Shown: positions 2,021 to 52,115 of the stretch, piece after piece
Position numbering within the stretch: the first letter of the stretch is position 1
How the letters are laid out: the number at the start of each line of letters is the position of its first letter
Program-made: the position numbers and the translations under genes
Notes under the pieces: generated by a model
Databases searched by the model: none
What the model saw: the letters and a program-made list of their open reading frames with translations, nothing else
Told to the model about the DNA's origin: nothing
Assembly: GCF_027595985.1 (NCBI RefSeq)
Contig: NC_073302.1
Coordinates: 279,837,116 to 279,901,115, forward strand
Direction: 5' to 3'
Length of the DNA stretch: 64,000 nt
DNA from: Sorex araneus
Taxonomy: Eukaryota; Chordata; Mammalia; Eulipotyphla; Soricidae

Positions 2021-2680
2021 ATAGCACTGTAGCACTGTCATCCCATTAACTTACTCCTCGGGTGCCAGTAGCATCTCCATTTGTCCCAGCCCTGAGATTT
2101 TAGCATCGTAAACTTGATGCCCTCTCTCCGTGGTGGATGCAGCACCCCAGCTGGATGTCCTTGGGCATGAGGGTGACGCGGTTGGTGTGGATTGTGCAGA
2201 GGTTGGTGTCCTCGAAGAACCCCACCGAGTAGGCCTTACACACCTCCTGCAGTGCCACGACGGCTGAGCTCTGGAAGCTCAGTTCAGTCTTCAAGTCCTG
2301 TGCGATCTCATTCACCAGCTGCTGGATTGGTAGTTTGTCTAGGATAAGCAGCTCGGTGGACTTCTGGTAGCGGCAGATCTTGTACAGCGCCACGGTGTAG
2401 GGCTGGTAGCACTGTGGCTTCTTCACGCCACTGGTGGCTGGTGCGCTCTTACGGGGCCGCCTTGGTGGCCAGCTGCTTGCCGGCTGCCTTCCTGCCAGTA
2501 GACTTGGCACTCTGTGTTTAGTACGAGCCCTTTTGTTCCTCCCAACTCAGCTGGAGACTCCTTGAGGGTTAGGGAAATGAGACCTATTTTTGTTACTGTT
2601 GTTGGCATACTTAGTATGTCACAGGTAGCTTGCCAGGCTCTGCCGTGCAGGCGGGATACCCTCGGGAGCTTGCTGGGCAA
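2021..2680 (-). repeat. Long-B element interrupted by a histone H3 pseudogene
   Basis: The tail (2,021-2,105, 'gcactgtagcactgtcatcc') and the body (2,532-2,680) flank about 415 bp of histone sequence. Compared with uninterrupted copies (1,341-1,690 and 15,762-16,013), the histone sequence replaces or splits the segment normally reading 'agcagcctctctttactcgt'. The 5' end in element orientation is truncated at about 2,680. Confidence 0.65.
2118..2531 (-). pseudogene. Histone H3 retropseudogene (H3.1/H3.2-like)
   Basis: The minus-strand translation is clearly core histone H3. Visible blocks include [21 protein letters not shown], the [17 protein letters not shown] helix region, [15 protein letters not shown] and MPKDIQL followed by a degraded GERA end. 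The FQSSAV-ALQ block is closer to replication-dependent H3.1/H3.2 than to H3.3. It is dead: the start codon position is AGG, the N-terminal tail carries a +2 and a +1 frameshift, one extra codon sits before GERA, and the stop is TCA. Many Arg/Lys positions are replaced. No introns and no poly(A) are visible. A missing poly(A) fits a replication-dependent histone mRNA, which normally ends in a stem-loop. It lies inside a long-B element in the same orientation. Confidence 0.9.
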
Positions 2681-17451: not shown

Positions 17452-17457
17452 CTTTGT

Positions 17458-17761
17458 TGTAGGGAGCCAGAGCACGTGGAGCAAAGATGGCGCCGACTCC
17501 GGCTGCCCTAGGTAATAAATAACCTCCAGAGCGCGGGCCCCGGCATCGCCCCCCATGGGGTGATTGGAAGGCAGCCAACTGGCGAGCAACACGTCAGAAG
17601 TGAGGGGTCTTCTCTATAAAAAGGGTATCGCTCTGAGGGTCGGGGCCTTCCTCCCCCATTTGTGTAAGTGTGGAGATCTCCAATAAACTGCTGCAGAAGG
17701 ACCCTCAACCGGTGTCGTCTCTCTTTGCTGGCAAAGGGAAACTGCGACAACGCGATTAACA
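17458..17761 (+). repeat. 5' LTR, 304 bp
   Basis: Starts TGTAGGGAGCC and ends CGATTAACA. A TATA box (TATAAA) lies at 17,615-17,620 and the poly(A) signal AATAAA at 17,692-17,697, so R is short. By eye it matches the 3' LTR base for base. The first 12 bases are shared with the solo LTRs at 28,070 (antisense) and 31,019. Confidence 0.97.
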
Positions 17762-17763
17762 AC

Positions 17764-17781
17764 TGGTGCCGAAACCCGGGA
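17764..17781 (+). promoter_or_regulatory. Primer-binding site, tRNA-Phe type
   Basis: TGGTGCCGAAACCCGGGA is complementary to the 3' end of mammalian tRNA-Phe with its CCA. It starts two bases after the LTR. tRNA-Phe priming is known from IAP-type class II elements, whereas many betaretroviruses use tRNA-Lys. Confidence 0.9.
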
Positions 17782-17784
17782 CGC

Positions 17785-17794
17785 CGGGTAAGTT
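17785..17794 (+). promoter_or_regulatory. Major splice donor candidate
   Basis: CGGGTAAGTT is a strong 5' splice site, a few bases after the primer site. It would serve a spliced env-type RNA with the acceptor at 23,558. Confidence 0.75.
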
Positions 17795-17853
17795 TCATTC
17801 GCACCTTGGGGAAGGCCCCTTCGTTCCGAAGGGAGGGTTCAGAACTGCAGGAG

Positions 17854-18024
17854 GGGTGACTCGGAGAGGCAGACTATAAGTCTGTCAGAAACCGAGGGGT
17901 GACTCGGAGAGGCAGACTATAAGTCTGTCAGAAACCGAGGGGTGACTCGGAGAGGCAGACTATAAGTCTGTCAGAAACCGAGGGGTGGCTCGGAGAGGCA
18001 GACTATAGTCTGTCAGAAACCGAG
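17854..18024 (+). repeat. Four tandem 43-bp leader repeats with hairpin palindromes
   Basis: Units lie at 17,854-17,896, 17,897-17,939, 17,940-17,982 and 17,983-18,024. Units 1-3 look identical. Unit 4 has one substitution (gggtggctc) and lacks one A. Each contains AGACTATAAGTCT, a 5-bp stem with a 3-base loop. In unit 4 the deletion makes AGACTATAGTCT, a perfect 12-bp palindrome. The position, downstream of the splice donor and before gag, is where retroviral packaging and dimer-initiation signals sit. That role is inferred. Confidence 0.93.
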
Positions 18025-18069
18025 CGGTCGGAAAGATTAAGCGCGCATGAAAGGGTACCCGGGATTAAG

Positions 18070-18087
18070 AAAAAAAAAAAAAAAAAA
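18070..18087 (+). repeat. Internal A tract of 18 bases
   Basis: A run of 18 As follows the leader repeats and precedes the gag remnant. It could mark an old junction or deletion where most of matrix was lost, but no second direct repeat was found to prove an insertion. Confidence 0.7.
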
Positions 18088-18096
18088 GATTGCCCG

Positions 18097-18765
18097 ATGG
18101 AGGCAAGGGCGAGGGAAGGGGGAGGGGAGAGTTCTCACCCACTCGCAACCAAGGAAAAAGGACCGCCCGGAGGGGGCGAGAATGAGGCGGGAGAGGAGGA
18201 GGCCACACCTCCCCCCACAGTTTACACAACTTGCTCTAGGCCGGGTGGGCCGAGGAAAATCTATCCCTGGGGGGATATGGCTGCAGCCAGCCTGAAACCC
18301 AAAGAGAGCTCTTCAGAAGACTCCCTTTCGAGCTCTGAAGAAGAGCAAATTCTAGACCAGGAAGCGGCACGCTACAAAGCGGCACACCGCTACGAAGCGG
18401 CACGCTATCGCCCCCCTGACCTCTGTAATCGAAACCGAAGCAGCAGAGCGCACTTACCGCGCCCCGTACCCTCGGCTCCCCCGCCCCCGCCGTACGCACG
18501 GGGAACGGAAGGAGCCCATGCATCCCAAACATCGTTACTTTCTGCTGAACTACATAAGCAGATGAGACCAGCCTTTCCTGTCTTTGAGGGAGATGGGAAT
18601 GGAAGAGTTCATGCTCAGGTAGAATTCAATCAGATTAAAGAGTTGGCAGAAGCGGTCAGAAAATATGGGGCAAATGCCAATTATACCATTTCCCTACTTG
18701 AAAGACTGGCCCGGGATAGGATGACCCCCCCCCCTTTTGCCTCTAGATTGCTAGCTTCTTATTAG
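18097..18765 (+). pseudogene. Gag fragment, betaretrovirus-like (linker region to capsid N-terminus)
   Basis: A 222-residue open frame. Residues 60-110 are Ser/Glu-rich and then Ala/Arg/Tyr-rich with a short internal repeat (AARYKAAHRY, YEAARY). Residues 125-133 read PSAPPPPPY and combine a PSAP (Tsg101-type) and a PPPY (Nedd4-type) late-domain motif, as found in the region before capsid in type D viruses. Residues 157-211 (PAFPVFEG...HAQVEFNQIKELAEAV...YTISLLERLARDRMTP) match the N-terminal capsid domain of betaretroviruses and IAP elements. Homology ends at a C10 tract (about 18,723-18,732) and a stop follows at 18,765. Most of matrix, the rest of capsid, nucleocapsid, protease and pol are absent. 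The ATG used is only the first in this frame; no typical myristoylated start is visible. It is not a functional Gag. Confidence 0.85.
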
Positions 18766-19765
18766 AAAGAGCCGGATGTACATTGTAGCAACCCCATTGT
18801 CAGGGGGACAAGACCAAAGGTAATGTGGACTCCCGTAGGGCAGGTTTAAGAATTTCTGTGTGAATGTACTGCGTTGGGTGCGCGCCGAAATGAAAGAGGA
18901 CCGGTCCGAATGAGTGCAAGAGTGTGATTTGCGCGAGTGCCTTTAGTGTGTGTGTATATTTGTTTCATTATATTTCTTTTAGTTATGCTTATTATTATCA
19001 GCAGAGAAGTCAGGAAAATGCAAGATCATGTGGTTGAGTGTTTAATAATATCAGGAATGAAAAAGAGTGTCACTAAGGTGGTCTATCCACCTCAGAAGTA
19101 GTCTTGATCTTAAAATTGTAACATCTGACAACTTAGGTTTCAACAACTTTGTCATGGATTGTTTTGCCGGCTTATATCAACAAAAGCGCTTTCTTGACCC
19201 GTTTTTAACAAGCAGGAAACTGGCTGGTCAGACAGAGAAACGGGGAGCAATGTTCCCAATCGGCCGACAGGGCTCAATTTGCCCTGGGGACTGCTCTTTC
19301 CTTTCTCTGTCTATCAGTTTTTCTCCCTGCCGTTTTTGAAGGGTCAGATCGATCGATCAACTGCAAATGTGTGCATGTGTAGTGGTGTTTTTTAGTCAGT
19401 TCATTGTCTGTCTGTCTGTCTGACTGTCTGTCTGTCTGTCTGTCTGTCTGTGGAACACTCGAGTGTTAGAGCTAGTTTGAAGTCATTAATTCTTAGAACT
19501 GAGCAAACAAAATCAAGGGAGTCAGAGTGATATGTAGTCCAGCAATTTAAAAGATTTAGGTATCTTTGGAACTTGTTAGATCAGGTTTAAAGAAAGATTT
19601 CTAATCAGAATGTGGCGACCACGAAATAACTGATATATGAAAACAGGCTCAAAGAGTAATGCTTAGGTTTAAAATATTATTTTCTAGAGTTGCAATATTG
19701 GTTGAAAAACTTATCGTACCTGTGTTTTATTAGATCTCTGAGATTTCCGGTAACAAAACTTTTTA
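18766..19765 (+). other. Proviral interior of unknown origin
   Basis: About 1 kb between the gag fragment and the nested ERV1 insert. It includes a CpG-containing stretch (about 18,860-18,945) and a GTCT/TCTG repeat (19,408-19,451), with no retroviral domain in any frame that I recognise. It may be captured host or other viral sequence replacing gag-pol. Confidence 0.5.
19408..19451 (+). repeat. (GTCT)n microsatellite inside the provirus
   Basis: About eleven tetranucleotide units with one TGAC interruption. Confidence 0.9.
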
Positions 19766-22047
19766 AAGCTACTTAGCTCAGGGTAATGAAGGGTTAATCT
19801 TAGATGTCAGTTTGAGAGATTTTTTTTTAAGATTTTCCCTGGATCTACCCATCCCCCTGCTTTTCCAGCTCAGCAGGCTCTGCCTCAGTCGGACTGGATA
19901 TGCAGACCCTCCCTCAACAATGAATTCTAATTACAGGTTTGCCCAGCAAATAAGACTTGCTAATCGGATTTCTTAACTCTTCCAGGTATCTGGTTCTTGC
20001 AACTTTGTGAATGAGAAAGGGTCTGGGAAAACAATTGATTCTTATGTTCGCATTAAAATCTGACAAACACACAAAAAAAGAAATAGTGTGAAACCCCTTG
20101 TAGGAGGAAAAGTCTATGCTTATATTTTAACAGATAACACCTACTATGTACTCTGGGTCCTGCTATGGCTTGGCTTCATCTGGAGTAAACTTCATTTTCC
20201 TGATAAAGACCCCAAACCACCTCAAACAGACCTCAGCTGGAAGTCACAAGGAAATCTGAGGAAGAAAGAACAGGCCGAATTGGCCTGAGGACTTAGTCTG
20301 GGTTTTACGGTACCAACCTTATCCTGAACCTAGAGAACTTTGTATGCAAGTGTGAGATCCTTAATGTTTTATGGTAATCTATGAGTGTTTTAATCTTTAT
20401 ATTTGTGTTTTCCTAGAAATCAGAATTCTAAGATGTCTCCTGGTTAATTTCTATGTGGAGTGAACCTTTGCCCAATGAATATGTTGTAAGAACTTTAGTT
20501 GTGAGCATCTTTAAATTTGTTGAATATCTATAGAACTGACCTAATGCTTTTGAAATAACACTGAAAGTAGTTTTGTCATGTTAAATGAAATGATTGGTAA
20601 TTTGTGCCCAAACTTGGAAGATCATGTTGTACTAAGTTCAGTAAAAATAAGAGTTTAGACTTGTGGGACTATAAAGAATATAGATGTATGTCTTAAGTCA
20701 GAAAGATAATGGATGCAGATATCATCAGTTGGAAAAAGGAAAGAAACTGATCACTGTTTTAAGAAACTCTTTAAATCACATGTAGAATTGTTCTAGTATG
20801 TTTTTGGTAGGATCTATGAAAAAGATATTGGATGGATTGTCTGGAACTCCTGTTACAGTGCTCTTAGATTATTGAATTCTTCAAAAGTTGTGGAAAATCA
20901 AGTGTTTTTTTTTTTAATGGGATTAAATGAATTAGACATGTTTAACTGTACACTGGACTCCCAGTACAGTGCTCTTATTAATGGGAAGTCAAGGTTTTCA
21001 ACATGGAATTGAATGGGTTAAACATGATGTAAATTGTACACTTTTCCTCTACAGATTTTAGCTTCTTTGACTAGGACCCACAACAAATGGGTGTGTTGCA
21101 TCTCACTGTGAGTAAAGTGAAATGTTTGCTTTTCTCTTCTTTTGTACCTTCAGTATGTTTTTGATGCTTCATGGCACTATGTTGGTTTGCATAAATCCAG
21201 ATAAAAGTCTTTCCTCTCTGTAATAGGGTCTACCCCTCATGCAGACAGGAAAATCAGTTATGAGACCCCAAAGCCCTCTTTCAGGGAAAGAGTCAAGGGA
21301 TTGTTCTAAATGACAGGAGCAGGTATTTAACAGGTACTGTTTCAAGTACCCTACAAACCTCAGGGAGACCCTAGAGGCCAGTTGGCTTAAGGAAAGAATG
21401 GAAATCATCACTGCTATGGAAAATGAGAAATCCGGCAATCTGTGTGACTGACACAATCTGGGCCTACTCAGCATCAAGGAAAACCCTGGAAACCAGGATC
21501 TCTCCCAGCCCTGAAAAAGGGAGAGGATGGACTCCTTTCTGCCAGGATGCATCTACGGAAAAGGCCACCTCCAGTTCAACCTGAAGGCTCGAGACCATCC
21601 AGTTTATCGTGGGACATTTATGGCCAGGCCTGGGTAACTCTGACGTGCCACATAGAATTAATGCCATTATTGGCGTGCCTCCTGTCTTTAGCCAACCCCC
21701 AGGACTTCTCAGTAAATAATGGGGTACCCCAAATGGAGAGTTCTCCAATCTTGCTGTATTTATGCAAAAGAACAAGTCAGATTTGTTAAGCCATCAGGCA
21801 AATTTTAAAATGAAGGTGGAGAGAAAACAATGTTTCTGTAACTTGCTTTTTAAAGAATCAGATTCAAATTCTACAGAGTAATCTAGTAAATGTATTCTAA
21901 TCTGGATCTAAAAGGTATCCCTTTTGGGTAATTCAGGTATAATGTGTTTTGCTGACTGTAAAGTAAGCAGCCTAGTCTTTGGGACTCAATGTTGAAGATG
22001 CTGTCACTAGTCTGACCAGGGTATTGGAAGCCAGAGCTTTAGTGGGG

Positions 22048-22554
22048 GGAACCTCAGCTCAAAGTGCAGAATTAATGCTTTCCCCCAACCTGTCAATTGG
22101 CTACAGTGCCAAGTGTGGACATTTAAACTGGTTCTAAGTATTCACTTTTAGTTCTATGAACACAGTCATTTGGAGAGAACTAGAATTTTAACAGCTCTTA
22201 ATTCTCGTTCCATCATGGGATTAATACCCCATCCAGAGAATACTCATCTAAGATACTCTGCAAAAGAGGAACAATAGGCATTGGAACAAGATTTTCAAAA
22301 GGAAATTGATAAAGGGTTACACTAAGCTTCCAACACTAGTGAAAGCCATCTTTCATGGGAAGGAACTCAGAACTGTGCTTTCTGTTTCATTAATGAATTG
22401 TGGGCCTCCTTTCCTAACACTTGTAACTTCAAGGAACTTGCCGAGGAAAGGATTGGCAGATTGACATGCAAATGATCAAACGCTCATATATTCAAGATAC
22501 GAACATCTACTGCTTCCAAATGACAGCTTCAGTGGATGGGTAGCTTTTCCAACC
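22048..22554 (+). pseudogene. ERV1 pol remnant (RNase H end and integrase core)
   Basis: The RNase H motif GTSAQSAEL and, about 400 bp later, integrase core motifs WQID and FSGWVAFPT lie in the order expected of gammaretroviral pol. They fall in different frames with many stops, and spacing is compressed by deletions. No catalytic triad survives as a readable unit. Confidence 0.75.
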
Positions 22555-23038
22555 TGAGAAGCGGTGTGGTGCTTCTAGGCCACTAGAAAAATCTGAACAT
22601 AGGAAGTCATTTTCTATCAACCAATGGGTGAAGCAGTTATTCCTTTCCATTGTTTTTATGACAGAAATAGGTGTAGGATTATGTTGTGTTGGTTTCTGCT
22701 GCTTTAATTTCTGTCTCACCATCCCAGGCAGAATGTTATCTAAAACTGTAGATCACTCTGCTCTTGCTAGATCAGAGGCAATATTCTACTCCAAGGTCTA
22801 ATCATTTCAAAGTGACATTCCTCAGTCTAATTGATCTGATCTCTTCTTTCAGATAACTTCAGGATCCCAACCAGTTCATTGCCTGGGGCCCACTAAAACT
22901 AAGGTAGCATGAGGTTTCACCCCTTGTGCAGGCAGGGCCAGCGCCCCTTTGTCAGCATGAAGCAGCTCCAGAAGATGGACCTTCAGCCATTTTCCCCTTA
23001 AAGATTTAAGGTGGTGAAATCTCTAGGGGGGAATATGA

Positions 23039-23430
23039 TGTAGGCAGGTAGATAGGGAAAGGCCCCTGGCAATGAAACTTAGATCATCAAAGTCTCCAGG
23101 GAGGAGAATCCTGAGACCCCTCCCCCCTGTGAAACCGCACCCGATAAGACCTTCAACAGACTCTGAGGATAGTAGACCCCTCCCCAGGAGGTTCCCCAAA
23201 GAAGGCTATCACCACTCTCAACCTCCCTGGTATACTTGAAAAGAAACCGCATGTGGGTGGGGGCAGGCTGTAAAGAACCTATAAAAAACAGCCCAATAGT
23301 CCATTCAAGGCTCTCTCTATCTTTGGAGGAGCCCGCGTTCTTTCTTGAGCACGTTACTCCTACTGCTTTCTCCTTTTCCACTTATCTCTTCCTCCTTCCC
23401 TAAGACCTTCTAAATAAAGTCTGTTACTTC
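23039..23430 (+). repeat. U3-R of the nested ERV1 element, ending at poly(A)
   Basis: Starts TGTAGGCAGG after a purine tract. It has CCTATAAAAAAC (TATA-like, about 23,278-23,289) and AATAAA at 23,413-23,418, and stops at the A tract 12 bases later. This is the 3' end of a transcript, not a full LTR. Confidence 0.65.
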
Positions 23431-23540
23431 AAAAAAAAAAAAAAAATTTAAGCTACTTAGCTCAGGGTCATAAGGAGTGAGAGTTTTTAAAGATTTCCGA
23501 GTCCGCAGAATGCTCCAGGGGGAACCCCTGAGAGGGATTC

Positions 23541-23560
23541 TCTCTTTTCTTCTTACAGAG
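23541..23560 (+). promoter_or_regulatory. Splice acceptor upstream of env
   Basis: The pyrimidine tract tctcttttcttcttacag is followed by AG, six bases before the env ATG at 23,564. It pairs with the donor at about 17,787 to give a subgenomic RNA. Confidence 0.8.
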
Positions 23561-23563
23561 AAC

Positions 23564-23869
23564 ATGCGGCTCGTCGTCCGGTGCCGACCCTGCGGGTTTG
23601 CAATGATGATCCTGCTGCTGACTGTGCAACCCACGGAGGCCGGATTGGGCCGACCGGCTCACCCTACACGCCTCCTACAACAGCTGTATGGGACCCTGTG
23701 CAACTGTCAGGGAGGACAATCTTCGGTGACCCCAACGAGCTACACGAAAACCGTGGACTGAGGGACTCTTACTATATATCTCGTCACTCGGCCCAGTGCT
23801 CGGGGCGGACTAACCCAGTTTTGGCAGTGCGTGCCCAAGCCTACTTTTATAAATAAGGGGGAATTTGCC
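23564..23869 (+). pseudogene. env surface-subunit N-terminal fragment, type-D/gamma-like, broken
   Basis: The ATG at 23,564 begins a hydrophobic signal peptide (FAMMILLLTV, about residues 12-21), then a short mature N-terminus with LLQQLYGTLCNCQGG. After 65 codons the frame hits TGA at 23,759. The same frame stays readable past that stop, with surface-subunit-like sequence, to a second TGA at 23,870. The remaining several hundred residues of the surface subunit are deleted. The fragment resembles the N-terminus of envelopes in the type D interference group. It is non-functional. Confidence 0.75.
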
Positions 23870-24195
23870 TGACACTTCAGGAGAAATGCTGTTTTTATGC
23901 CAACAAGTCGGGTATAGTGAGGGACCGGGTTAGAAAACACCAAGAAGAATTAGAAAAAAGGAGACATGAGTTTTATGAGCACCCGTTTTGGTCGGCGTGG
24001 GGGGGTGTGTTGCCCTATCTCCTCCCCCTTTTGGGGCCCCTTGTTGGAGCATTATTACTGATCTCCTTTGGTCCTTGGGCATTCCAACGCCTAACTCAGT
24101 TTATTAAAGATCAGGTGAATGCCGTGACCTCACGTAAGGTGGAAGTGTACTATCACCGCCTGGTGCAAGCCTACCCAGGGGAAGACTCTGAATGA
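23857..24195 (+). pseudogene. env transmembrane-subunit C-terminal fragment, gamma/type-D-like
   Basis: An open frame of 112 codons in another frame than the surface fragment, after a G run at 23,857-23,861. It starts at the CX6CC motif (C-LTLQEK-CC, 23,866-23,892), which in gamma-type envelopes binds the surface subunit. Then come a charged helix, a hydrophobic anchor (LPYLLPLLGPLVGALLLISF) and a cytoplasmic tail ending at TGA 24,193-24,195. The fusion peptide and the region before CX6CC are missing, so this is a remnant. CX6CC separates it from typical betaretroviral envelopes and supports a type-D-like recombinant ancestry. Confidence 0.88.
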
Positions 24196-24224
24196 TACTT
24201 GTACAACATTCTGTTCTGCACCTC

Positions 24225-24282
24225 CGTATAATACCGTGCCTTGTTTTTGATTGCGTATAATACCGTGCCTTGTTTTTGATTG
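24225..24282 (+). repeat. 29-bp tandem duplication after env
   Basis: Two identical 29-bp units starting CGTATAATACCGTGCC lie at 24,225-24,253 and 24,254-24,282, just past the env stop. Confidence 0.95.
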
Positions 24283-24741
24283 AATCTTAGCAGAGTGTAA
24301 GCTGGCGTAGGTGATGATGCCTAGTCTTTTTAGATCGTTTAGTCCCAACGGTTGCTCAGCCTAGGTGGTCTGTCCCCCCGCCGGAGGCATCGCCGCTTTA
24401 AATCAAGCTGCTCAGTGCTTTTTTTTATGCTGAGTGTAGCCCCTGCACACTCGGGATCTGTGGATCCATTGCACGAGTTTGGGTGCACCGGCAATGGTCT
24501 CAGGGAAGGGTGTCAGACTAGATGGTACTGCACTGGGTCTCTCTCCTCCCTGACCCAGGGCGAAGAGCCGCTTGCATAGGGCCGCCGTCGAAATTTTGCC
24601 CTGCCTGGAAAAGCGGACGGCGGGACAGGAGGAGCCTCATCGGATCCTGAAGAGGGACCCGTTGAGGCCACCTCAGTCCCTGATATTTTTACAGGCAGTG
24701 GTGTCCGTCGCCCCCTTTCTCGCAGAGACCGGCTCCTTAGT
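24283..24741 (+). other. Proviral 3' noncoding region, possible RNA-export element
   Basis: About 460 bp of GC-rich sequence between env and the polypurine tract. Type D viruses and IAPs carry constitutive RNA-transport elements in this position. Position is the only argument here; I could not establish a matching fold. The stretch 24,640-24,750 is open in one frame but unrecognised. Confidence 0.4.
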
Positions 24742-24759
24742 AAAGAGATAAGGGGGAGT
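24742..24759 (+). promoter_or_regulatory. Polypurine tract
   Basis: AAAGAGATAAGGGGGAGT directly precedes the TG of the 3' LTR, as needed for plus-strand priming. Confidence 0.9.
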
Positions 24760-25063
24760 TGTAGGGAGCCAGAGCACGTGGAGCAAAGATGGCGCCGACT
24801 CCGGCTGCCCTAGGTAATAAATAACCTCCAGAGCGCGGGCCCCGGCATCGCCCCCCATGGGGTGATTGGAAGGCAGCCAACTGGCGAGCAACACGTCAGA
24901 AGTGAGGGGTCTTCTCTATAAAAAGGGTATCGCTCTGAGGGTCGGGGCCTTCCTCCCCCATTTGTGTAAGTGTGGAGATCTCCAATAAACTGCTGCAGAA
25001 GGACCCTCAACCGGTGTCGTCTCTCTTTGCTGGCAAAGGGAAACTGCGACAACGCGATTAACA
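24760..25063 (+). repeat. 3' LTR, 304 bp
   Basis: Same length as the 5' LTR, and I find no mismatch between them. It ends AACA and is followed by the CTTTGT target duplication. Confidence 0.97.
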
Positions 25064-25069
25064 CTTTGT

Positions 25070-36179: not shown

Positions 36180-36885
36180 TACATCAGTGATCACTTCCTT
36201 GTAGAATAGTGAGATCCTGGTGGTGAATCCACAATACAGCTTGCGGAGTATTTTGATATACTGAGTTTGAACCCCTGTTTGGCCAAGGCTTCGATGACCG
36301 CCTCAGTCTCAACAGAATCAAAGGCCTTCTTTAAGTCGATGAACATTAGACAGAGCGGCATCTTGAACTCTCTAGAAACTTCAATGAGTTTGGTCACTGT
36401 GTGGATATGGTCAATCGTGCTGAATCCTCTTGGGAACCCAGCTTGCTCACATAGTTGTCCTTTGTCTAGTGTTCTGCCTATTCTATTCAAGATGACACAA
36501 GTGAAAATCTTGTACATGACAGACAACAGGCAGATTGGGTGATAGTTGCTGATGTCGTGGATGTCTTCCATCTTATACAACAGAATGGTCCTACTGGCTT
36601 TCCACTGGGATGGAAACTTGCATTCAGACAGGTAACATGTGAAGAGTCGGACTAGTGTATTGATGAGTACTGGCAGCAGATTCTTCAGTTGCTCGGGTCT
36701 GACCTTGTCCGGGCCAGGTGCTGTTTGCGTCTTTACCCCCAAAATGGCATGTTGGATTTCAGAAGGGAGAACATTGGGAACGACAAATCCATCCTGCGCA
36801 ATTTAGTATGTGGGCAGGTGGACACGGCTGTCAAAGAGATCAGAGTAGAAGTCGTGAATAATTTTCTCCATTGCCTTTCTGGCGG
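36180..36885 (-). pseudogene. RTE reverse transcriptase, N-terminal half (inverted)
   Basis: On the minus strand: ARKAMEKIIHDFYSDLFDS, a TAA stop, then LPSEIQHAILGVKTQTAPGPDKVRP, NYHPICLLSVMYKIFTCVIL, QAGFPRGFSTIDHIHTV and the catalytic motif-A block FIDLKKAFDSVETEAVIEAL. The main open frame is 36,742-36,191. After AKQGF the frame shifts, and the continuing sequence is readable to about 36,180. The style of these motifs is RTE clade, distinct from L1. Confidence 0.9.
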
Positions 36886-37856
36886 AAGTGATCATTGATG
36901 TAAAGAGAGGGGTGTGGCAAGGTGATAACATTTCACCGAAACTCTTCAGTGCCACCCTTGAGAACATCATGTGGCAACTGGAATGGGAAGGAATGGGAGT
37001 GAAGATAGACGGTCGGCAATTATACCACCTCCGCTTCGCTGATGACATCTTCTCATAACGCCAAACATTGGCCAAGCGGCAGAAATACTGGCTGACTTCG
37101 ACCACAAGTGTGGAAAGGTCGGATTGCAGCTGAATCTCAACAAGTCGATGTTCATGAAAAACAAACTAGTCCCTGAAGCTCCATTTGCTCTCAATGGAAC
37201 GAACATCTCCGAATGCAGCAGCTATGAGTACCTGGGTCAAGAACTCAACATGAGGCATGACTTGGTGCCAGAGCTGCACAAGAGGAAGAGAGCAGTGTGG
37301 ATTGCCTTCAAGAGCGTCGAAGAGGTGGTTAAGAGAACGAAGAAACTCCGACACCGGGCACATCTTTTCAATTCCACCATTCTTCCTGCACTAACATATG
37401 CCTCAGAGACCTGGGCCCTACGCAAACAGGATGAGAATGCTATTAGGGTTTCCCATAGAGGAATCGAAAGAGCTATGCTGGTAATATCATGTCTCACTCA
37501 AGTGTGAGAAGGAATCCAGAGTTCTGACCTTTGTAGACGGTCAAAAGTCAGGGATCCTGTCTCGTTTGCCAAGGCATCAAAAATCAGATGGGCCGGTCAT
37601 GTAATGCGATTCAGAGATGACCGTTGGACTAGAGCTGTTACAGACTGGATTCCATGGAACGTCAGAAGACCTCGTGGCCACCCACCAACTAGATGGTCAG
37701 ATTTCTTCATCAAATCTCTGAATGAATGATTTGAGGCTCTTTCTGTTCCTGGAGTGAGCAGGTATCACTGGGCTACACTAGCTCTCGACAGGGACAAATG
37801 GAGATGTTACTGGCACCCGCTCAAGCAAATCGAAGATCAGCGGGACTACAAGTGAT
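36886..37856 (+). pseudogene. RTE reverse transcriptase, C-terminal half
   Basis: It continues from motif A: DVKRGVWQGDNISPKLFSAT (motif B region), LRFADD (motif C, with both Asp codons kept), then a frame broken by TAA and frameshifts. The open stretch 37,124-37,507 reads LNLNKSMFMKNKLVPEAPFA, SSYEYLGQELNMRHDLVPEL and LPALTYASETWALRKQDENA. The C-terminal end is readable as LALDRDKWRCYWHPLKQIED ending at about 37,850. Those last codons are the region that SINE-B and long-B tails resemble. Confidence 0.9.
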
Positions 37857-51535: not shown

Positions 51536-51889
51536 TTATTTTTTCCTTAGTCTTTTCTCAAGCCTCAACTTTCTTCAGCACTTTCTCAAATTTAAAATGG
51601 ATGCAGCCCTTATGTTATATAAGATAAGTGGAGTTTTATCAAGTGAGTCCTGTTCCTCACTCTGGTTTCAGGGTTTCCTTTTATGCCCAAACAGGAATAA
51701 GCGTTTTTCAGTGTCCACTTAACCTTAAGTTCTGTTATGTCAATTGCAGCCTTTCTGTCTTCACAATTCTTTAGTAATGTATTAAATGATTCTCCACTCC
51801 AGGGGAAGATGATTATTTTTATAATAAGTAAATCATCACTCAAATCATCAAGTCAGTGTCCCTAACAAAAATGAAAAATGTGAGAACTA
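51536..51889. other. Intergenic DNA
   Basis: No feature recognised. Confidence 0.5.
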
Positions 51890-52115
51890 TATTTCCAGGG
51901 ACAGGGAACGTTTCCTACAGTGAGTGACTAGAGAAGTTTCTCTGTGTGCAGCGCGGGACACCCTGAGAAGCCTGAGCATCGTCGCCTTAGCCGCAAGTGG
52001 CTTCTCGGAGTTGTTTTGCAACTGCCTTTTGCCATTGGTGATGTCATTCTCTTCCCTTGATAGAGTGGCACGGAGAGGATCTAGTCTGCACGGTCTCTTG
52101 AAAAAAAAATAATAA
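51890..52115. other. Unassigned CpG-containing patch ending in A tract
   Basis: It contains several CpG sites in otherwise AT-rich DNA ('cagcgcgggacaccctgaga', 'agcatcgtcgccttagccgc') and ends in A9 at about 52,102. It could be a retroposed fragment, but no source and no TSD could be identified. Confidence 0.35.

What the first reader, a model, noticed from the sequence alone, without database searches (positions are those of the whole stretch)
17452..25069. Recently integrated, coding-dead chimeric retrovirus: a candidate non-autonomous ERV family
The two 304-bp LTRs appear identical and the TSD is perfect, so integration is young. Yet the interior has only fragments of gag and env, no betaretroviral pol, and about 4.7 kb of foreign or decayed sequence. 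A provirus that decayed in place would show LTR divergence. The simplest reading is that the defective chimera itself was transcribed, packaged and reverse transcribed with proteins from a helper, like ETn/MusD in mouse. The kept cis parts (promoter, tRNA-Phe primer site, splice sites, leader repeats, polypurine tract) fit this. LTR gene conversion is an alternative.
Basis: partly seen in the sequence, partly recalled or inferred. Interest (0 to 1): 0.88.

Follow-up and report, generated by a model that had tools for sequence, protein, structure and literature searches.

The report
Helper-dependent retrovirus family in a mammal
This is a young, gutted endogenous retrovirus that belongs to a whole family of such hitch-hikers, which sit beside a few gene-bearing relatives with the same control regions and probably spread by borrowing their proteins.

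Summary
The two 304-bp LTRs are identical and flanked by a perfect 6-bp target duplication. The locus is not unique. Among the 40 best LTR matches are 15 further LTR pairs. All 15 have different, perfect 6-bp duplications; 13 have identical LTR pairs, 2 have one mismatch. The gag/foreign junction recurs in 14 of 15; in the 15th a nested provirus interrupts gag first. A primer-site/leader pattern finds 81 elements: 64 carry markers of the foreign interior, 9 a reverse transcriptase, 8 neither, none both. Two RT-bearing relatives have open gag and RT pieces where sampled. One RT-bearing provirus has an LTR identical over 349 bp to that of a defective copy; in another, gag reads on past the C-run where the defective copies leave it. 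The foreign segment is noncoding and ends like a polyadenylated ERV transcript (U3-R-like sequence, AATAAA, poly(A)). This is the anatomy of bovine D-type ERVK[2-1-LTR], koala recKoRV and mouse ETn: a new member of a known kind. Mobilisation in trans is inferred, not shown. Donor origin and insertional polymorphism remain unresolved.

The parts
17452..17457 (.). target-site duplication CTTTGT, left copy
17458..17761 (+). 5' LTR, 304 bp; TATA-like box 17614-17624, AATAAA 17682-17687
   Evidence: 304/304 identical to the 3' LTR
17764..17781 (+). primer binding site TGGTGCCGAAACCCGGGA (fit to tRNA-Phe recalled); splice-donor-like GTAAGT at 17788-17793
   Evidence: pattern 17762-17793 found at 81 places in the genome
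17851..18028 (+). 4.2 copies of a 43-bp leader repeat; leader RNA 17762-18046 folds strongly (z -5.5; the repeats add to this, since shuffles destroy them)
   Evidence: repeat present in 15 of 15 other 5' pieces
18029..18276 (+). pre-CA gag remnant; matrix (Gag_p10) is missing from this copy, present in the one sister copy scanned (L023); L015 has a similar extra stretch
18277..18730 (+). gag fragment ending early in CA (Gag_p24 N-terminus); leaves gag inside the C-run 18725-18734
18731..23446 (+). foreign, noncoding central segment ('X' up to about 19820, then 'INS'), ending in poly(A)
23025..23430 (+). donor 3' end: purine run 23025-23033, TG at 23036, TATA-like 23280-23289, AATAAA 23413-23418: reads like U3-R of another ERV
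   Evidence: direct reading; the assignment is inference
23431..23446 (+). poly(A) run of 16; length differs between copies
19766..19784 (+). 19-bp sequence AAGCTACTTAGCTCAGGGT, first copy
23450..23468 (+). same 19-bp sequence, directly after poly(A)-TTT
23557..23558 (+). splice-acceptor-like AG before the env ATG at 23564
   Evidence: direct reading
23564..23761 (+). env 5' fragment (leader and start of SU by reading; no Pfam match)
23917..24195 (+). env TM C-terminal fragment (TLV_coat 493-560)
24750..24758 (+). polypurine tract AAGGGGGAG
   Evidence: direct reading
24760..25063 (+). 3' LTR, 304 bp
25064..25069 (.). target-site duplication CTTTGT, right copy

Best explanation
The element is one copy of a non-autonomous class II (betaretrovirus-like) ERV family. 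Shown: it has LTRs, primer site, leader, a gag start and an env end, with the middle replaced by a noncoding segment; the same chimera sits at many sites, each sampled one with its own target duplication and (near-)identical LTRs; a smaller set of elements with the same leader carries gag, RT and (8 of 9) env matches. Inferred: the chimera arose when reverse transcriptase switched between a betaretroviral RNA and a polyadenylated RNA of another retroelement in one particle (exit from gag in a C-run, donor 3' end at its poly(A)). Since then LTR-driven chimeric RNA has been packaged, reverse transcribed and integrated by Gag-Pol from the RT-bearing relatives, and the two kinds have kept recombining.
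For: Own LTRs 304/304 identical, TSD perfect. 15 other LTR pairs: 13 with 0 and 2 with 1 LTR difference, 15 of 15 perfect and mutually different 6-bp TSDs. Gag/X junction in 14 of 15; poly(A)/pre-env junction in 7 of 15, the other 8 carrying two kinds of deletion there. 81 leaders: 64 with chimera markers, 9 with RT, 8 neither, 0 both. RT search: 40 of 43 candidates scored, 10 copies at 95-100%, next 74%; 9 of the 10 lie 3.4-3.8 kb behind this leader. Open Gag_p24_C, zinc knuckle, RVT_1 and RVT_thumb pieces in two relatives. In one relative gag runs on from the same C-run where the chimera leaves it. An RT-bearing provirus has an LTR identical over 349 bp, and a leader/matrix piece 99.9% identical over 876 bp, to those of two defective copies; it is itself inserted in the gag of a defective copy whose outer LTRs are identical.
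Against: No transcription, particle or mobilisation data. No RT-bearing copy was read whole, so full competence is not shown; 3 of the 8 env matches behind RT-bearing leaders contain stops and one is partial. A less related betaretrovirus could be the helper: 150 Gag_p24 matches, 148 without a stop, were listed of 1531 candidates. The 15 pairs come from the 40 LTRs most like the query, so youth is biased upward; LTRs of other copies are as low as 92.5% to the own one. X and INS markers are top-40 lists, so the 8 unclassified leaders may be of either kind. Env-side likeness to the sampled RT-bearing copy is weak.
Confidence: 0.9

Rival explanations
1. A single old provirus decayed in place and its LTRs were made identical by gene conversion.
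For: LTR conversion exists (known); interior frames are broken.
Against: The broken interior recurs with the same gag junction at many sites with different TSDs; both LTRs of a copy share lineage variants.
Confidence: 0.02
2. The copies spread as segmental duplications or by LINE-1 rather than by retroviral integration.
For: A poly(A) run lies inside the element.
Against: The own copy and 15 of 15 others have LTR ends and their own 6-bp TSD; the 12-base flanks printed differ between copies.
Confidence: 0.02
3. The central INS segment is a LINE-1-made retrocopy of an ERV transcript, inserted into an older, smaller defective element, with the 19-bp repeat as its target duplication.
For: 19-bp exact repeat, the second copy right after AATAAA-poly(A)-TTT.
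Against: A ~75%-similar version in another copy runs across the supposed 5' boundary; 73 of 73 genome matches to the joined-flank pattern (up to 1 mismatch) were the pre-env form, none the empty site.
Confidence: 0.3
4. The family is mobilised by unrelated betaretroviruses of the genome, not by the same-leader RT-bearing relatives.
For: Many open betaretroviral gags exist: 150 matches listed of 1531 candidates.
Against: LTR and leader alleles are shared between an RT-bearing and two defective copies of this family, best explained by co-packaging.
Confidence: 0.1

Closest known systems
Bovine ERVK[2-1-LTR] D-type (with C-type helper), PMC10924933 (passages and section 20 read)
   Same: ERVK clade; central segment swapped for an old piece of retroelement; flanking gag and env portions and LTRs kept; defective outnumber competent (85% to 15% there; 64 marker-bearing to 9 RT-bearing of 81 leaders here); recombination between the two.
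   Different: Other host (unnamed here) and other sequence (not compared); there de novo insertions were seen, here mobilisation is inferred; here the donor 3' end keeps a poly(A) run.
Koala recKoRV (KoRV helper, PhER donor), PMC5696478 (passages read)
   Same: LTR + truncated gag / several kb of a noncoding ERV-like element including its 3' LTR / truncated env + LTR.
   Different: KoRV is a gammaretrovirus (abstract start of PMC11703332 in the listing); donor PhER known there, donor unidentified here; here the donor end is U3-R-like plus poly(A).
Mouse ETn / MusD, PMC6466679 (passages read)
   Same: Class II; LTR-bearing, no coding capacity, mobilised by coding relatives.
   Different: ETn keeps gag and pol flanks (PMC10924933), here gag and env; MusD lost env, whereas 8 of 9 RT-bearing relatives here have an env match.

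Membership tests
Non-autonomous LTR retroelement mobilised in trans (ETn/D-type kind) | multi-copy chimera with shared internal junctions and different target duplications | tested here: met
Non-autonomous LTR retroelement mobilised in trans (ETn/D-type kind) | no pol of its own | tested here: met
   no Pfam domain in 19 of 19 open stretches of >=60 aa of the foreign segment; none of the 64 marker-bearing leaders is among the 9 with an RT match
Non-autonomous LTR retroelement mobilised in trans (ETn/D-type kind) | coding relative with the same LTR/leader in the same genome | tested here: met
   full coding competence not tested
Non-autonomous LTR retroelement mobilised in trans (ETn/D-type kind) | mobilisation depends on the relative's proteins | not testable with these tools
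   needs experiment
Class II ERV / betaretrovirus-like | betaretroviral gag and class II RT | tested here: met
   Gag_p24 in own copy, Gag_p10 in a sister copy; RT piece of a relative best matches PDB 7sr6 (that this is HERV-K RT is recalled)
recKoRV-like architecture | truncated gag - noncoding ERV donor with its 3' LTR - truncated env | tested here: inconclusive
   truncated gag and env met; the donor's LTR is assigned by reading only, its source family was not found
LINE-1 retrocopy inside the element | clean 5' boundary with target duplication and empty sites elsewhere | tested here: inconclusive
   19-bp repeat present, boundary not clean, no empty site among 73 matches
Currently mobile family | presence/absence polymorphism | not testable with these tools
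   one assembly only

The most novel reading that the evidence does not exclude
A third independent mammalian lineage, besides cattle and koala, has built the same gag-stub / old retroelement with its 3' end / env-stub element, and here the donor's poly(A) tail is preserved at the junction. That would show that the swap happened by template switching on a polyadenylated RNA inside a particle, and the defectives, still segregating, now outnumber and recombine with their few competent relatives.
Probability: 0.45. Interest if true: 0.7.

Novelty: new member of a known kind. Interest (0 to 1): 0.52.

Why it matters
Cattle, koala and mouse pairs suggested that competent ERVs repeatedly spawn parasites with the same anatomy, which may hasten the family's end (PMC10924933, passages read). 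A further pair in another genome, with young members on both sides, supports a general mechanism. Its poly(A)-marked junction bears directly on how such chimeras form.

Tried and rejected
Rejected: in-place decay, segmental duplication, LTR conversion as sole cause. My own first idea, a LINE-1 retrocopy inserted at the 19-bp repeat, was weakened and is kept only as a rival; beyond the 19 bp the two flanks are no more alike than shuffles. Selection on the gag piece: synonymous excess in the right frame only, P 0.08; TM tail P 0.065; neither significant (the same test, timed out). In one search the open-stretch listing had no landmark in 4 of 15 copies (L010, L018, L019, L020). Pfam found nothing in 19 of 19 open stretches of the foreign segment nor in the env 5' piece. 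The donor could not be found: DNA searches score only the 40 best candidates, and the donor-end pattern did not complete. Papers: five searches with shrew terms (listings only: 15 of 18 listed, 10 of 26, 10 of 10, 10 of 258, 2 of 2) showed no title or abstract start reporting such a family; PMC4102558 names Sorex araneus in a table (one passage).
Full report
Observation. The provirus runs from 17458 to 25063, with 304/304 identical LTRs and a perfect TSD CTTTGT. It has a primer site at 17764-17781, a GTAAGT donor, 43-bp leader repeats, a gag fragment with Gag_p24 positions 2-42, about 4.7 kb of foreign sequence, an env start (by reading) and an env TM end, and a polypurine tract. Zero differences in 304 bp does not by itself give a sharp date.

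Family. An LTR search scored 40 of 294 candidates. These are the own pair, 15 further pairs and 8 LTRs without partner among the 40. For the 15 pairs I read the 5' and 3' pieces separately. LTR differences: 0 in 13, 1 in 2. Target duplications: 15 of 15 perfect, all different from one another and from the own one. Pooled with the own pair this is 2 differences in 16 pairs of about 304 bp, but the copies were chosen for likeness to the query. The gag/X junction is present in 14 of 15, with a C-run of variable length; in the 15th a second provirus interrupts gag before it. X was scored in 40 of 1357 candidates. In the 30 X loci read, 14 are continuous as here; 16 carry about 530-610 bp more, followed in 5 by the same end and in 11 by a ~79%-similar end.

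Subfamilies and recombination. At the 3' side 7 of 15 copies have the same poly(A)/pre-env/env structure as the own one, 6 jump from the donor U3 to late env, and 2 have a third deletion. The own X is closest to that of 4 of the 6 'jump' copies (99.7-99.8%), while the own 3' half is like that of the 7 (env 99.4-99.8%) and not of the 6 (92.6%), which points to mosaics. At least one of the 7 (C12:7417390) also has a continuous X, i.e. the same overall layout. Twenty loci found with a diverged INS piece have LTRs 92.5-100% identical to the own LTR, so the family is not one single burst. A sister copy (L023) keeps matrix (Gag_p10); the own copy lacks that stretch.

RT-bearing relatives. The leader pattern occurs 81 times, 73 exact and 8 with one mismatch, with no match of the reversed control. 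Intersected with markers, 63 carry X, INS or the pre-env sequence within the set distances, and one more has its X displaced by the nested provirus, making 64. Pieces of two env-bearing elements without these markers are open for Gag_p24_C, a zinc knuckle (in one of them) and RT with a YMDD-type motif. The RT piece finds 10 copies at 95-100% and then nothing above 74%. Nine of the 10 lie 3.4-3.8 kb behind a leader of this family; the tenth has no leader in the list. Eight of the 9 have an env match behind them, of which 3 contain stops and one is partial. Eight leaders remain unclassified. Whether any RT-bearing copy is fully competent was not examined, and none is singled out here.

Link between the two kinds. 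In one RT-bearing copy gag is about 97% like the own fragment over the last 196 bases, up to ...GACCCCCC, and then reads on; the own copy leaves gag in the same C-run. On the env side likeness to that relative resumes around the splice acceptor (about 23513) and is weak. A nested RT-bearing provirus has a 349-bp LTR identical to the 3' LTR of a defective copy, and its leader/matrix is 99.9% identical over 876 bp to that of another. Such sharing is best explained by co-packaging of the RNAs (inference).

Donor. The foreign segment has no Pfam match in 19 of 19 open stretches of at least 60 aa. Its end reads like PPT, U3, TATA, R with AATAAA, then poly(A) whose length varies between copies. A 19-bp sequence occurs both at 19766-19784 and after the poly(A). 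If this were a LINE-1 target duplication, 19784 should be a clean boundary, but a ~75%-similar version runs across it, and no empty site was seen among 73 matches. Template switching at the donor's poly(A) is the reading I prefer, with modest confidence.

Comparison. Passages and one section of PMC10924933 describe bovine D-type elements as a swap of the central segment for an old piece of retroelement with gag and env portions kept, and name ETn/MusD and recKoRV as parallels. PMC5696478 passages describe recKoRV with the donor's 3' LTR included. The element here works like these (inference) and has their anatomy. It is a new member of that kind, not a new kind.

Noticed in passing
window 2103-2546 (-): Open stretch with a core-histone match (Pfam Histone, E 6e-28), probably a histone H3 retrocopy.
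   Followed up: partly
window 36194-36802 (-) and 37046-37504 (+): First stretch matches RVT_1 (E 3e-11) and looks like an old non-LTR retrotransposon remnant; the second has no Pfam match.
   Followed up: partly
window 51883-52094 (+): U3 small nucleolar RNA match, 39.8 bits against a gathering score of 34; may be a pseudogene.
   Followed up: no
G000, C1:257813455-257830455: An RT-bearing provirus of the same family is nested inside the gag of a defective copy whose own LTRs are identical.
   Followed up: partly
G000, whole genome: 150 Gag_p24 matches listed of 1531 candidates, 148 without a stop inside: the genome holds many betaretroviral gags with open frames.
   Followed up: no
L010 (C12:7417390 copy), 694-1544: An 87-bp unit (a multiple of 3) of the pre-CA gag region is tandemly repeated about eight times in one copy.
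   Followed up: no
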